From positions 1 to 47,779 of the IMG/VR virus record IMGVR_UViG_3300046471_000223: a stretch of DNA of 47,779 bases, one strand, 5' to 3'. A program made the translations under genes and the position numbers. Below are positions 4,811 through 47,022 of the stretch, piece after piece. The notes beneath the pieces were generated by a model. That model did no database searches and had not been told where the DNA came from. It saw only the letters and a list, made by a program, of their open reading frames with translations. The number at the start of each line of letters is the position of its first letter. Positions within the stretch are counted from its first letter, which is position 1. This DNA is from a virus.

Positions 4811-5176
4811 CTAGGGGGCGTGGCCGAATCTGGTGCGGAAGTCAGTTTCCATCTTCGCGCATGCGCCGCTGATAATGGCTTGGGCGCCATATGGGCCCTT
4901 GTAGGACGCTTCATTATCCCGGCAGATGCCTATCGCTCGTCGAGCCTGGGCTTTCGCCTGAGCCTCAGGGGATGATCCTAGCATTGCGCCGATAGCCAGG
5001 AATCCAGCTCCCAACACAACGACAACAATGAGAGCTTTCGCGAAGAATCCCATTGGCTTCTTCGCTTGCGGGGAGGGGACCTTAAAGGCCGTTGTCAGAT
5101 CAGCATGACAATGCCTGCACCTGATGGCTTCCACCTTGATCCTTTCCGCACAATAAGGGCAATCCTTTTCACGCAC
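4811..5176 (-). CDS. zinc-ribbon membrane protein, last gene of the cI operon
   Basis: I start the gene at the GTG at 5176, which has GGAG eight bases upstream; an earlier TTG at 5203 has no site. The 121-residue product opens with a CPYC...CRHC zinc ribbon (about residues 5-25), a short linker, one membrane segment (ALIVVVVLGAGFLAIGAML, about 45-63) and an outer or periplasmic helical tail with cysteines. Ribbon-plus-membrane proteins of this kind are widespread and unnamed. Its place in the lysogenic transcript suggests a membrane-acting superinfection function, which is inference. Confidence 0.65.
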   Translation of the reverse strand: MREKDCPYCAERIKVEAIRCRHCHADLTTAFKVPSPQAKKPMGFFAKALIVVVVLGAGFLAIGAMLGSSPEAQAKAQARRAIGICRDNEASYKGPYGAQAIISGACAKMETDFRTRFGHAP

Positions 5177-5220
5177 TACGCCATCTCCATCAAATTTTGG
5201 CAAAAAATCGATAAGAAGAG

Positions 5221-5244
5221 AGGCCCTAAATAGGGCCTTTTTTT
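5221..5244. terminator. bidirectional hairpin between the last two lysogenic genes
   Basis: AGGCCCTA and TAGGGCCT pair around two bases, with a T run on the plus strand and a moderately T-rich stretch (CTCTTCTT) on the minus strand. It follows directly the stop of the 311-residue gene and may partly uncouple the last gene of the operon. Confidence 0.6.
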
Positions 5245-6178
5245 AATCAGTTATCAGCTTGTATGTGGAAGATTCTTTTTCTGTAATTTCGTCTCTAGAT
5301 GTATATTTCAGAGCTTTCAAAGATACGTGCATACCAAGCGAGTACTGCTGAGCATAATTGTATTGTTGTTTGTTGTATTCAATCTTGATCTTATAGCCAT
5401 CGTCGACCCTTAATATGATCGAGCCTGAATCATTCAGTACAGCTACCTTCCCAGCTAGCGAAACCGCCTCGGGCTTTATTTTGCTAACAATTGACAGTCG
5501 CTGCCTAGCGAGCCGAACGCTGTCTAATGTGCCGCCCCATTTGTGTACCGAGGAATCAGGAGATGGCCAAGTCAATTCGGCGCCTATGTCTCGCTTCTCA
5601 AGCTCCTTCAATAGATCACAGAGCTCTCTCGTAGCACGTATACCTATCGTGGATACAAGCTCCTTCACCTGTTCGGGAGATTGCTCCATTAATAGGCTAA
5701 ATATTTTCTCTAGGGCGCTTTCAAGAACGATGTCCCCAGTTGCATCAGGCGATAAACTCCCAGCAAAGAGTAGCCGGGTTGAACCGGGCGCTAGGCTAGA
5801 TAATCGAATATCAAGTTCATCAGATAACTCATCTGGTATCCCTCGCTCAGGATCAATGCCGTACCGTAAATGGAACGCGGCAAATCCGATAGCGCTGTGG
5901 AACTTGTTGGAAACCATAGTCAGTAACCGAAGCGGTATACTTCCGTCCAATCTCCATCCAGTAAGACGAAGTTCTATAACTTCCTTCTTTAGCGATTCCT
6001 TCGCAACTCTCAGGTCTTGAAGTAATTCATCTCGCTGACTTTCCCAAGACGACAAAGCAATCCTGATAGAGAAATCTCCAGGTGCTTTCTCTAGGCTGGC
6101 CTTATCACGAGCGACAAATGCCTTCACCTGAGCAAGCTGGCGCTCCAGCCAGTCAATTCTTTTCTCTTGCTCTGTCAT
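5243..6178 (-). CDS. 311-residue partner of the nucleotidyltransferase; candidate lysogenic exclusion protein
   Basis: The ATG overlaps the stop of the nucleotidyltransferase gene (ATGA), so the two are translated together. Residues 1-75 form a charged coiled coil (EQEKRIDWLERQLAQVK). Residues 80-240 are a mixed alpha/beta domain with GSIPLRLL, LDIRLSSLAPGSTRLLFAG and a helical part (VKELVSTIGIRATRELCDLL). Residues 240-311 are a beta-rich C-terminal domain (LAGKVAVLNDSG, ILRVDDGYKIKIEY). There are no membrane segments. I know of no function for this family. GC content looks lower than in the phage backbone. Position after cI suggests constitutive expression in the lysogen, as for lambda rexA/rexB. 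Confidence 0.7.
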   Translation of the reverse strand: MTEQEKRIDWLERQLAQVKAFVARDKASLEKAPGDFSIRIALSSWESQRDELLQDLRVAKESLKKEVIELRLTGWRLDGSIPLRLLTMVSNKFHSAIGFAAFHLRYGIDPERGIPDELSDELDIRLSSLAPGSTRLLFAGSLSPDATGDIVLESALEKIFSLLMEQSPEQVKELVSTIGIRATRELCDLLKELEKRDIGAELTWPSPDSSVHKWGGTLDSVRLARQRLSIVSKIKPEAVSLAGKVAVLNDSGSIILRVDDGYKIKIEYNKQQYNYAQQYSLGMHVSLKALKYTSRDEITEKESSTYKLITD

Positions 6179-6636
6179 GGTTTCAGCCTCAGTAGTGCTA
6201 GGCCCTTGGGAGTAATCTCGTCTCGCTGAGTTCCAAACTTTTGAAACCAGAAGGCCTTGCCCTCTGCGTCGTCGCTCGGCACTGCATGCACGTCGAGCTT
6301 GAAGCGAGCTTTTGCGTAGGCGGTGGTGAGGAGGTTGTTCACGGCATTCCAGGTAGATTCGGTTAGATCCCGAACGCACGAAGGATCGTAAATTACCAGC
6401 AGGTCTATATCGTCGGGATCGTGCTTCTGGCACATAAATGAGCCATCAATCCACATCTCCGCCTGTAGACCGTGCTGCTCCAAAAGCCCGACATAAATGT
6501 CGAAAAGCTCGAAAAGCATGGCCCTGCGCTTTGAATCAGGAAACCCATCTACAGCTAGACTTCTCAAGCTGCTGAGTGAGTGTTCGTGAATGCCCTCGCC
6601 CAGCAGCGGCGGAAAATCAGCTTTGATTAGGTTCAT
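6175..6636 (-). CDS. nucleotidyltransferase-fold protein (DUF6932-like)
   Basis: This 153-residue protein carries the nucleotidyltransferase signature: GSF at residues 65-67, a DDID pair at 75-78 and a third acidic strand (KLDVHAV, Asp about 115). That matches the G[GS]...[DE]h[DE]h pattern of MNT/DNA polymerase beta-fold enzymes, and the catalytic residues look intact. It overlaps the end of cI by 20 bases and the start of its 311-residue partner by four. Enzymes of this fold act as antitoxins, toxins or second-messenger makers in defence systems; which applies here is unknown. Confidence 0.75.
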
Positions 6637-7045
6637 CAGTCTGCAGCAGCAGCTCCATGGCCCGTTTCAGTCTCAGCGCCTGAGCTTCGGAGATGCCAAG
6701 CATCTTGTCGGCAATCTCGTCCACCGCCTGGCGGTGAGCTGGCGCTGCTTCTTCGTACTTTTGCTGCTGATATGTGCGTGAAGAATCGCCACCTAAAGGA
6801 GGGCGCGATGATCCATCGCCGGCTGCATTGCGGGATGGGGCGAGCATCTCGCCGACACCTTCCGCGAGCCAAATAGCTGAGACACCGCAGGCAGCAGCAA
6901 GCTGCGCGGTGTAGGCGGTTGCTTTGGATTTGCCTCTCTCAAGGTCTGAAATCGACGTTTGATTGATTCCGACCTTTTCGGCGAGAGCGATCTGTCCAAG
7001 CTTCGAATGACGTCTTGCGGCCTTTAGCCGGTCTTTGAATTCCAT
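6617..7045 (-). CDS. cI: CI-type prophage repressor without a peptidase domain
   Basis: Residues 1-70 are an XRE-family helix-turn-helix ([20 protein letters not shown], then [16 protein letters not shown], then [16 protein letters not shown]). The remaining 70 residues are a linker and one amphipathic helix region ([20 protein letters not shown]). At 142 residues it is about 90 short of LexA/CI repressors, and there is no S24 cleavage site or Ser/Lys dyad. It probably dimerises through the C-terminal helices and cannot be cleaved through RecA. The start at 7045 coincides with the predicted pRM transcription start, so the message may be leaderless as in lambda. Confidence 0.85.
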
Positions 7046-7052
7046 GCTCCGA

Positions 7053-7081
7053 GTATTACGGGTACGCCCATACCCTTGCAA
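7053..7081 (-). promoter_or_regulatory. pRM promoter (repressor maintenance)
   Basis: On the minus strand: TTGCAA (7081-7076), 17 bases, TAATAC (7058-7053). Transcription would start at 7045 or 7046, exactly at the cI start codon, and no leader or ribosome-binding site at proper spacing is present. The -35 hexamer TTGCAA is its own reverse complement and is also the -35 of pR. Confidence 0.7.
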
Positions 7082-32808: not shown

Positions 32809-33033
32809 ATGGACCGGCAGCAAGTCGAGAATCTTGAGATGCGGCTGACATGTATCGAAAACCAGCTTACGCACATTCTCTGCCTCCTACGGGGCGGAAA
32901 ATCAGATGGCCTTGCAGCTCACGCGTCTACTAGAAAATCAACCGATGATGCCGCTCCGTTAGGGGCGGCAATAACGCGCATAACCACTAGACGGACGCTC
33001 AACCCAAGTAGAGGCGATAAATATCTTTCTTAA
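32809..33033 (+). CDS. 74-residue small protein with N-terminal coiled coil
   Basis: GGGGGAAG precedes the ATG. The N terminus (MDRQQVENLEMRLTCIENQL) is a perfect heptad-like helix, then a disordered tail (STRKSTDDAAPLG). Its end overlaps the start region of the minus-strand protease gene by 35 bases. It may be a remnant at the edge of the inserted minus-strand block. Confidence 0.45.
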   Translation: MDRQQVENLEMRLTCIENQLTHILCLLRGGKSDGLAAHASTRKSTDDAAPLGAAITRITTRRTLNPSRGDKYLS

Positions 33034-33475
33034 AATCCATGATCAGGACGCCGCACTCGATTAAATGCATTCCTATGAGTAAGTGCTCAGTAGCGGGGCT
33101 ATTGCGCAGAGGTGCTGAAAATATCTGAGTTTCAAGCTGTGCAGCCGCTTCAGGGAAGAATAGGTGACCTAGATATCGCGCGCTTTCTGTTGCCTCCGCA
33201 GTTGCCCCATGAGTCACGCCGGTGCCCGTATGGGGACATCCTGCAGCCACTATCGCATCAGGCGTCGCGTAGTTTTGATCTGCGCCCGTGTCTAGCAGGG
33301 CGTAGATAGGCCGGTAACTCAGAGGCTCTCGGGGGCCATTTGAATGTTCTGGGTCGTATCTCAATACCACTCGCACAACCGGTCGGCCTGGTGGATGATC
33401 TGAGACGCTGCCATCTTCCCCCATGAATCTTATAGGCGAGTATTTGAATCCATCCGGCGCTGAGCATCCACTCAC
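32999..33475 (-). CDS. retropepsin-like aspartic protease
   Basis: A GTG start with a perfect GGAGGT five bases upstream. The 158-residue protein contains YRPIYALLDTGADQNYATPD: the hydrophobic-hydrophobic-D-T-G-A active site (Asp62) of retroviral-type aspartyl proteases. A matching flap and the second conserved strand at about 131-138 (HLLIGMHLI, in place of IIG.D.L) follow. Like retropepsins it has only one DTG and should work as a dimer. It is encoded against the tail operon and in AT-richer DNA, so it is cargo. Its substrate is unknown. Confidence 0.75.
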   Translation of the reverse strand: MSGCSAPDGFKYSPIRFMGEDGSVSDHPPGRPVVRVVLRYDPEHSNGPREPLSYRPIYALLDTGADQNYATPDAIVAAGCPHTGTGVTHGATAEATESARYLGHLFFPEAAAQLETQIFSAPLRNSPATEHLLIGMHLIECGVLIMDFKKDIYRLYLG

Positions 33476-33550
33476 TTTGACCTCCTAGTCGTGTTACCCC
33501 GGTCCATTGGCTGTTAGGCAACGGACGTTAGGTTTGTCTTCACAATTTTG

Positions 33551-34138
33551 TTAATTATTCGGCTCAGTCGCTTTGAGAAGATCAGATGCCCGCCTAGTGA
33601 AGTGGAATATGCGTTCGCCTTTTTGATTGTGGTCAATATTAAGCAGACCTAAGCTTACGAGCTGACGAAGGTCGTCTTCAATAAACCTAGGTTCATCAGC
33701 GGCCCATCCTCCAGACGCGTCCAATGAGTGAAACTCTGTCCTCCGCATGAGTTTCAGCTCGAGTAACTTCCCGGATCCGCTTGATTCGTAAAAGCGCAAC
33801 AAATCCAAAGCTTGTTTGGACAACAAAGAATTAGGGCTAGTGCTAGCAGCGAGAGATTCAAACCCCTCCACTGAGCTTGCGAATCCCGCGAGGGCAGATT
33901 CAATTCTGGCTAGCCTTTCGACAAAGTCAGAGCGTTGAGTATTTAGGAGAGCTTTGATACTCACTGTTGTGCCAAGGTTGGCTTCGATCGCGGCTTTGAG
34001 TTCGTCCTGCCCCGATTGTATTAGCCATATGAGAAACCGGTCAAAATCCTTCCCCGACGCTGCATCTCGGCTCGATTTGTATTGACCAATCAGGCCAACC
34101 AAAGTCGCTAAAGTACCTGCACCGGTTAACGGGTCCAT
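33551..34138 (-). CDS. 195-residue cargo protein of unknown function
   Basis: GGAG lies six bases before the ATG at 34138. Residues 1-25 are mildly hydrophobic (GAGTLATLVGLIGQYKSSRD), 30-100 are helices (FLIWLIQSGQDELKAAIEAN, FVERLARIESALAGFASSVE), and 115-195 look like a winged-helix domain (LSKQALDLLRFYESSGSGKL, DDLRQLVSLGLLNIDHNQKG, IFHFTRRASDLLKA). I do not recognise the family. It lies upstream of the protease gene on the same strand, 75 bases apart, and the two may form one operon. A dyad ACGGT...ACCGT at 34164-34185 lies in front. Confidence 0.65.
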   Translation of the reverse strand: MDPLTGAGTLATLVGLIGQYKSSRDAASGKDFDRFLIWLIQSGQDELKAAIEANLGTTVSIKALLNTQRSDFVERLARIESALAGFASSVEGFESLAASTSPNSLLSKQALDLLRFYESSGSGKLLELKLMRRTEFHSLDASGGWAADEPRFIEDDLRQLVSLGLLNIDHNQKGERIFHFTRRASDLLKATEPNN

Positions 34139-34271
34139 TCGTTGCTCCAATTAATGTCCATAAACGGTACGCTACTACGCACCGTCTCATTCCCGTTACT
34201 GGCCTTTTGTCCACACTGGATGCCCAGCCAGTGGCCTGCTACATTGCCGGCTTCATCAATGAGGGATCAGC

Positions 34272-45935: not shown

Positions 45936-46169
45936 TTAATCATGTGAGGGTTTTGCGAGGTTTTTCGAGGACGGGGCGGCTAGGCTGATTCTGTCCAATT
46001 CATGCCAAGGGTTGAATCGCTCAGCGGAATAGAGGCAGCCTGTCAGATGCTCAAAAGGGCGGCTCATATCTGCTTCGATCTGCGAGGCATGGCAGCTACG
46101 ACAACTGACTACGTTATTCTTTATACGCCAAGAAAAGTGCCAACGTAAGAGACGCTCCTGTGCATTCAT
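45936..46169 (-). CDS. small zinc-finger protein, paralogue A
   Basis: CGGAG lies before the ATG at 46169. The 77-residue product starts MNAQERLLRWHFSWRIKNNV and holds CRSCHASQIEAD followed by FEHLTGC: a CxxC-H...HxxxC arrangement for one zinc. It shares about half its residues with the gene at 46554-46769 in the same order and orientation. Function unknown. Confidence 0.65.
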   Translation of the reverse strand: MNAQERLLRWHFSWRIKNNVVSCRSCHASQIEADMSRPFEHLTGCLYSAERFNPWHELDRISLAAPSSKNLAKPSHD

Positions 46170-46398
46170 AGCAATCTCCGGCTCAACCTCGAAGCGGGAT
46201 TGATAAGTGATAGTAGAGATTCTCAATCCGAATGGATAGCGTGCATGCACGCGAGATGATCAGTGGGTGATCTTTCGGGGATGGGCCGGCAGTGCCTGAA
46301 AGGTTCAGAGCGCACGTTGATCACGGACTGACGGTTACCTAAGCGCCCGATAGGGAACAGTGAGGCACGTCATGGCCATCGACTCGTCTTGTAGCCAC

Positions 46399-46553: not shown

Positions 46554-46769
46554 CTACCGATGATGCGTCGTCTGGAAGCCTCGACAGATACGATCCAATT
46601 CGGACCACGGATCAGGTGCTGCAGAGCTTTCCTTACATCCAGGCAGGTGCTCGAATGGAGTGGCTCTTTCCGCTTCCAGCTGCGTGGCATGGCACGATCT
46701 GCACGTCACGACATCCTTGCTAATTTGCCAAGTGAAATGCCACCTGAGCAGTTTTTCCTGAGCGTACAT
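46554..46769 (-). CDS. small zinc-finger protein, paralogue B
   Basis: CGGAG lies upstream of the ATG at 46769. The 71-residue product (MYAQEKLLRWHFTWQISKDV, CRSCHATQLEAE, FEHLPGC, PDPWSELDRICRG) aligns throughout with the gene at 45936-46169, including all cysteines and histidines. The two are a duplicated pair near the right prophage end. From 46770 to 47020 I see no gene. Confidence 0.65.
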   Translation of the reverse strand: MYAQEKLLRWHFTWQISKDVVTCRSCHATQLEAERATPFEHLPGCKESSAAPDPWSELDRICRGFQTTHHR

Positions 46770-47022
46770 TTGCTGTCTCCGGCATCCAGCCTCAAGCGTC
46801 TGAACGAACCATGGGCAATGCACACTCAAAAAGATAGAAGTAATTTGAAATAAATTCAAACGGGTGTATTTAGCAATGACTGCGTATGCAAGTTTTCTAT
46901 AAAGCTCATTTAAAAGTTTCGACGGCGACATCGCCAAGCCGCATGAGCGCTCAGGCGCTACATCTCACTACAAAAGCTGTCATTAAGCTGGCATAACTGA
47001 GCCAAAACAGCCCATTCAGGCA

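What the first reader, a model, noticed from the sequence alone, without database searches (positions are those of the whole stretch)
5243..6636. Two-gene nucleotidyltransferase + coiled-coil partner unit in the lysogenic operon: candidate exclusion or toxin-antitoxin system
Seen: a 153-residue protein with an intact nucleotidyltransferase signature (GSF, DDID, third Asp) is coupled by ATGA overlap to a 311-residue protein with coiled coil and two unknown domains. The pair is fused to the 3' end of cI and ends at a terminator, with lower GC than the backbone. Known: genes behind cI are expressed in lysogens and often give superinfection exclusion (rexAB); nucleotidyltransferase-fold proteins are frequent in toxin-antitoxin and defence loci. 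Inference: the unit protects the lysogen, with the enzyme modifying the partner, tRNA or nucleotides.
Basis: partly seen in the sequence, partly recalled or inferred. Interest (0 to 1): 0.72.

Follow-up and report, generated by a model that had tools for sequence, protein, structure and literature searches.

The report
Prophage nucleotidyltransferase defence-candidate gene pair
A Pseudomonas phage carries, directly behind its repressor gene, a tightly coupled pair of genes (a small nucleotide-transferring enzyme and a partner protein) that recurs in many phages and beside known bacterial immune genes, so it probably protects the infected cell from other viruses, although nobody has yet shown that it does.

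Summary
A (6175-6636, -) is a 153-aa DUF6932 protein with a predicted minimal nucleotidyltransferase (MNT) fold and invariant GS/DxD residues. B (5243-6178, -) is a 311-aa helical hairpin + alpha/beta + OB-fold protein. They share an ATGA overlap; A overlaps the repressor's 3' end by 20 nt. Both match PADLOC's untested candidate system PDC-M63 (A 5e-46, B 4e-171), so the locus is a new member of a catalogued candidate. In 105 DUF6932 genes, 97 are followed directly by a B-family gene; no B was found without A. The pair sits in the lambda rexAB position in coliphages mEpX1 and PhiR30_1 and an Erwinia phage. Outside phages it lies beside Type III R-M, inside a Type I R-M operon, and beside a Cas9 locus. 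A also pairs with Xre-ImmA proteins, and in several replicons fills the A slot of PD-Lambda-2, a proven anti-phage system. Defence is therefore the best reading; mechanism and toxin polarity are inferred. The one published test (E. coli NILS69 deletion, ten virulent phages) found no effect.

The parts
6175..6636 (-). Gene A: 153-aa DUF6932 / PDC-M63A protein, minimal-nucleotidyltransferase-like (W62-D64-G65-S66, D76-x-D78, D115)
   Evidence: ORF; PF22014 E 4.5e-24; PDC-M63A 5.3e-46; phrog_9194 2e-39; AlphaFold pLDDT 94.3, best PDB matches MNT proteins
5243..6178 (-). Gene B: 311-aa PDC-M63B protein; N-terminal helical hairpin (3-61), alpha/beta middle (66-231), C-terminal OB-fold-like domain (237-308)
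   Evidence: ORF; PDC-M63B 4.1e-171; phrog_6603 3.6e-84; AlphaFold pLDDT 86.8; OB-fold matches
6175..6178 (-). ATGA overlap: stop of A and start of B
   Evidence: sequence AAACCATGACAG; the same -4 overlap in most of 97 relatives
6617..7054 (-). Phage repressor (cI-like, HTH_3, no S24 domain found) whose 3' end overlaps A by 20 nt
   Evidence: HTH_3 3.3e-8, phrog_2328 transcriptional repressor 2e-16; overlap; the same 20-nt overlap in about 20 related contigs
5221..5238 (-). Hairpin directly downstream of B; T-run on the + strand, weak tail on the - strand (possible terminator of either strand)
   Evidence: sequence; no more such sites in the region than in shuffles (3 found, 2.6 expected)

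Best explanation
The locus is a lysogeny-expressed anti-phage module of the PDC-M63 kind, carried as an accessory operon behind the repressor in the same place as lambda rexAB. Shown: an invariant MNT-like active site in A, obligate coupling to B, recurrence in the rex position and in defence islands, and use of DUF6932 in the A slot of PD-Lambda-2-type operons. Inferred mechanism: A is the enzyme that acts. It transfers nucleoside monophosphates from NTP to a nucleic acid (tRNA or its CCA end is my first guess) or to a protein. B is its non-enzymatic partner: the hairpin and middle domain hold A in an inactive complex, and the OB domain binds nucleic acid. On superinfection a phage product or RNA is sensed through B, A is released or directed, and modification stops translation or replication before the second phage can multiply.
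For: PADLOC PDC-M63A/B matches. Pair conservation: 97 of 105 DUF6932 genes directly followed by a B-family gene, mostly -4 overlap; in genome samples and named phages 11 of 11 B genes next to A. Rex-position copies in mEpX1, PhiR30_1 and Erwinia vB_EhrS_59 between cI and the early-left genes; upstream neighbours of phage copies are mostly HTH/S24 repressors (HTH_3 in 30 and Peptidase_S24 in 23 of 57 non-redundant). Defence islands: beside Type III R-M (L042), between hsdS and hsdR of a Type I R-M operon (L044), beside Cas9/Cas1 and a CRISPR array (L050). DUF6932 + PD-Lambda-2_B (1e-75) + PD-Lambda-2_C (2e-38) in L046, same annotated order in L143 and L151; PD-Lambda-2 is a proven abortive-infection system (PMC9519451). 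Invariant catalytic residues in A against no invariant catalytic-type residue but R71 in B.
Against: Deletion of PDC-M63AB in E. coli NILS69 changed nothing against ten virulent phages (PMC12409345). In PD-Lambda-2 the second gene alone was toxic and the first rescued it, and the closest solved structures to A are MNT antitoxins: both argue that A could be the neutraliser instead. A's third carboxylate is His in 12 of 43 relatives. OB and MNT structural matches have modest scores (E 0.003-0.04).
Confidence: 0.6

Rival explanations
1. Toxin-antitoxin pair with reversed polarity: A is an MNT-type antitoxin that nucleotidylates (AMPylates) B, and unmodified B is a nucleic-acid-binding toxin released on infection, as HEPN toxins are by MntA.
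For: A's best structural matches are MntA-type antitoxins (7ae9, 1no5, 7bxo). In PD-Lambda-2, whose A slot DUF6932 can occupy, the second protein alone is toxic and the first rescues it; PD-T4-10A, also a first gene, is the antitoxin of its toxic second gene (PMC9519451).
Against: B is no HEPN protein: no Rx4-6H motif in the window protein, hairpin-alpha/beta-OB architecture instead of a four-helix bundle, no HEPN among its listed PDB matches. B has no conserved catalytic-type residues apart from R71, and no Tyr target site among its invariant columns.
Confidence: 0.25
2. A lysogeny- or replication-control accessory of the phage (for example acting on repressor, antitermination or induction) with no defence role.
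For: Constant position behind the repressor and before N-type genes in lambdoid phages; translational coupling to the repressor; no defence seen in the one published test.
Against: B-family pairs occur without any phage repressor beside R-M and CRISPR genes; lower GC than the phage backbone, as expected for a swappable accessory module.
Confidence: 0.1
3. A signalling system of CBASS type: A makes a nucleotide messenger and B is its receptor.
For: NTase-fold enzyme next to a second protein in defence islands; EfCdnE appears weakly among fold matches (rank 26, E 0.29).
Against: A is a 153-aa minimal domain without the C-terminal helical part of CD-NTases; PADLOC CD-NTase models are not hit; B shows no effector domain (nuclease, TM, phospholipase) or SAVED/CARF-type sensor match.
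Confidence: 0.05

Closest known systems
PDC-M63 (PADLOC-DB phage defence candidate, genes M63A + M63B)
   Same: Both proteins match with full-length profiles, in the same order and adjacent; the E. coli NILS69 pair tested in PMC12409345 is also prophage-encoded.
   Different: PDC-M63 is only a candidate without known function; this copy is in a Pseudomonas-type phage and overlaps the repressor gene.
PD-Lambda-2 (Vassallo et al. 2022, PMC9519451)
   Same: DUF6932 proteins can take the first-gene slot of PD-Lambda-2-like operons (L046, and by annotated gene order L143, L151).
   Different: The window partner is not an Xre-ImmA peptidase, there is no beta-family third gene, and B's N-terminal hairpin is not detectably homologous to that of the Xre-ImmA proteins (HHalign probability 6.9).
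HEPN/MNT (HepT/MntA) toxin-antitoxin systems
   Same: A has the MNT-like fold and a GSx9DxD signature.
   Different: The partner is not a HEPN protein; A belongs to DUF6932, and the Pfam Polbeta model matches only at E 0.28.
Lambda rexAB superinfection exclusion
   Same: Same operon position directly behind cI in lambdoid phages.
   Different: No rex family matched in PHROGs; B is predicted as a soluble multidomain protein, unlike the membrane protein RexB (established knowledge).
Phage proteins annotated DUF6575 (BFVD A0A8S5QA00) and Leptospira phage LE1 Q6NE06
   Same: Long structural matches to B (E 3e-12 and 5e-9); DUF6575 is named among domains of an experimentally selected defence system (PMC9519451).
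   Different: The Pfam DUF6575 model does not match B, and two DUF6575-containing proteins that I tested showed no similarity to B; a lead only.

Membership tests
PDC-M63 (PADLOC) | M63A homologue | tested here: met
   PDLC04744, E 5.3e-46, residues 4-151 of 153
PDC-M63 (PADLOC) | M63B homologue adjacent in the same operon | tested here: met
   PDLC04750, E 4.1e-171, residues 1-310; ATGA overlap
PDC-M63 (PADLOC) | Anti-phage activity | not testable with these tools
   Only published deletion test was negative (PMC12409345)
DUF6932 (PF22014) | Match above the Pfam gathering score | tested here: met
   85.9 bits against 27
NTase superfamily, active enzyme | GS motif and DxD carboxylates | tested here: met
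   invariant in 43 non-redundant relatives
NTase superfamily, active enzyme | Third carboxylate | tested here: inconclusive
   D115 present here; Asp in 30 and His in 12 of 43 relatives
HEPN/MNT toxin-antitoxin | MNT-fold protein | tested here: met
   best PDB matches are MNT proteins, E 0.008-0.04, TM 0.25-0.46; similarity modest
HEPN/MNT toxin-antitoxin | HEPN partner with Rx4-6H | tested here: not met
   no motif in B, other fold
PD-Lambda-2 | Xre-ImmA second gene and beta-family third gene | tested here: not met
   B matches only PDC-M63B in PADLOC; the following gene is a zinc-ribbon protein
AbiE/MenT NTase toxin systems | AbiEii-type NTase with winged-helix AbiEi antitoxin | tested here: not met
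   no such Pfam or PADLOC match for either protein
CBASS | CD-NTase of about 300 aa plus effector | tested here: not met
   size; no PADLOC CD-NTase or effector match
RexAB | RexA/RexB homology | tested here: not met
   only phrog_9194 and phrog_6603, both of unknown function; only the position is shared

The most novel reading that the evidence does not exclude
DUF6932 is an interchangeable nucleotidyltransferase effector of a new class of prophage and defence-island immune systems. One enzyme is combined with at least two unrelated partners (hairpin-alpha/beta-OB 'M63B' proteins, or Xre-ImmA proteins of the PD-Lambda-2 kind) and works by a route different from HEPN/MNT, MenT and CBASS.
Probability: 0.35. 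Interest if true: 0.65.

Novelty: new member of a known kind. Interest (0 to 1): 0.45.

Why it matters
PDC-M63 is a database candidate without known function. The evidence here (rex-position copies in well-known coliphages such as mEpX1, copies beside R-M and CRISPR genes, an invariant active site, and DUF6932 in the slot of a PD-Lambda-2 component) makes it a good system to test and gives concrete tests. E. coli carries it too: the PhiR30-type pair in 97 and the mEpX1-type in 18 of 5,426 complete genomes. If it works it would add an NTase-based mechanism to prophage-encoded immunity.

Tried and rejected
NCBIfam gave nothing usable. PDB sequence searches: nothing for B above noise; A's profile finds only weak DNA polymerase beta matches (E 0.2-1.3, aligned over the GS/DxD stretch). 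Idea that B's N-terminal hairpin is a shared A-binding element also present in Xre-ImmA partners: HHalign not significant (probability 6.9), dropped. Idea that B is a DUF6575 protein: Pfam no match, no similarity to two DUF6575 proteins, kept only as a structural lead. Literature: no paper for DUF6932, one for PDC-M63. Three 'B without A' rows (L131, L133, window) are ORF-calling artefacts: the A match lies directly upstream in each. Zinc-ribbon gene 4811-5203 as third component: seen also behind the P. crudilactis copy, but absent from the annotated lambdoid copies, so not included.

Full report
Observation. A is 6175-6636 (-), 153 aa; B starts at the ATG at 6178 and ends at 5243 (-), 311 aa. 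A's stop and B's start share ATGA, and A's ATG lies within the last 20 nt of the repressor ORF, so repressor, A and B form one translationally linked run. B has GC 0.459 and A 0.522 against 0.579 for the rest of the phage; B is in the lowest 0.3% of windows of its size. The hairpin behind B at 5221-5238 is better placed as a terminator for the + strand; on the operon's strand its tail is CTCTTCTTAT. The genes are under purifying selection against the Pseudomonas crudilactis copy.

What the proteins are. A matches Pfam DUF6932 (4.5e-24), PADLOC PDC-M63A (5.3e-46) and phrog_9194. B matches PDC-M63B (4.1e-171) and phrog_6603 but no Pfam family. So the pair was already catalogued, as a phage-defence candidate without a known function. 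Among 43 non-redundant A proteins W62, D64, G65, S66, K71, P74, D76, D78, W130, K144 and G145 never vary; D115 is Asp in 30 and His in 12. The AlphaFold model of A (pLDDT 94.3) best matches minimal nucleotidyltransferases of HEPN/MNT systems (7ae9, 1no5, 7bxo; E 0.008-0.04, TM 0.25-0.46), and its profile weakly finds DNA polymerase beta over the GS/DxD stretch. B's model (pLDDT 86.8) has an N-terminal helical hairpin, an alpha/beta middle and a C-terminal domain matching OB folds (IF1, SSB, S1, aminoacyl-tRNA synthetase). In the viral structure library it matches over most of its length a protein annotated DUF6575 and Leptospira phage LE1 Q6NE06 (E 3e-12 and 5e-9); sequence tests did not confirm a DUF6575 relation.

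Conservation of the pair. In genome samples of the family and phylum of P. crudilactis, B was found in 5 of 299 and 4 of 399 genomes, and every B there and in the named phages has A directly upstream (11 of 11, mostly -4 overlap). A viral-contig scan gave 80 loci. In the pooled set 97 of 105 DUF6932 genes are followed directly by a B-family gene. A distant chromosomal partner family (L042-L054) and a Streptococcus satellite-phage partner (L007) join the same family by iterated HMM; profile comparison of the window family with the distant set gives probability 99.4, E 2e-20 over 287 columns.

Position. In coliphages mEpX1 and PhiR30_1 and Erwinia phage vB_EhrS_59 the order is cro, cI, A, B, then the early-left region: the slot of lambda rexAB. 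Of 57 non-redundant upstream neighbours (56 from the viral set plus the window's own), 30 match HTH_3 and 23 the S24 domain of cI-type repressors. About 20 contigs of the window's closest group share the exact 20-nt overlap with the upstream gene. Expression with the repressor in the lysogen is inferred from this arrangement.

Outside phages. Copies lie beside a Type III R-M operon (L042), between hsdS and hsdR of a Type I R-M operon (L044), and beside Cas9, Cas1 and a CRISPR array (L050). No background rate was computed, but three of 19 sampled loci lie next to complete defence operons. Eight DUF6932 genes have no B behind them: some by contig ends or ORF calling, but three (L041, L045, L046) have an Xre-HTH + ImmA-type protein instead. 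In L046 that protein is PD-Lambda-2_B (1e-75) and the third gene PD-Lambda-2_C (2e-38). The same three-gene order stands on Sinorhizobium and Agrobacterium plasmids by annotation. In the published PD-Lambda-2 the first gene is HigB-like, the second alone is toxic and is rescued by the first, and the third is needed for defence (PMC9519451). DUF6932 therefore stands in for one component of a proven anti-phage system.

Function. I read the locus as an accessory anti-phage module with A as the enzyme and B as its partner. The direct evidence stops at an intact active site, obligate pairing and context. Polarity is open: the PD-Lambda-2 result and the MntA-like fold favour A as neutraliser, whereas the lack of conserved catalytic residues in B, and A being the part shared between two partner types, favour A as effector. 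The one published test, deletion of PDC-M63AB from E. coli NILS69, showed no effect on ten virulent phages; its authors note the limited diversity of that phage set (PMC12409345), and temperate phages, the likely targets of rex-position genes, were not in it.

Verdict. Ordinary in kind (a prophage-borne candidate defence pair already in PADLOC), but well supported as a real, mobile, defence-associated two-gene unit with a probably active enzyme and an unknown, testable mechanism.

Noticed in passing
window 4811-5203 (-): Zinc-ribbon plus probable transmembrane protein of 130 aa directly behind the pair, also behind the pair in P. crudilactis (L002 7010-7378); phrog_23817, unknown function.
   Followed up: partly
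window 32999-34150 (-): Two minus-strand genes in a low-GC stretch inside the tail module; the 158-aa product has an LLDTGAD motif like retropepsin-type aspartic proteases: a second likely accessory insertion.
   Followed up: no
window 45936-46250 and 46554-46937 (-): Two similar small Cys-containing proteins in tandem near the right end (LLRWHF..CRSCHA.Q.EA...PFEHL.GC), probably a duplication in low-GC DNA.
   Followed up: no
L145, L146, L150: Rhizobium, Nostoc and Roseovarius plasmids carry a DUF6932-like gene, an Xre-HTH gene and a DUF4186 gene in a row, followed by a gene annotated radical SAM in L150: a possible third system type around DUF6932.
   Followed up: partly
L144 3501-5221: A DUF6932-like + ImmA/IrrE pair sits between Tn7 tnsE and an IS30 next to blaNDM-1 on an Acinetobacter pittii plasmid; equal matches in two other Acinetobacter plasmids.
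   Followed up: no
L044 3886-5475 and L050 7679-8017: A stretch matching the N terminus of one Type I specificity model, which looks like a small NTase domain, is fused to the specificity subunit in L044 and stands alone next to the DUF6932 pair in L050.
   Followed up: partly
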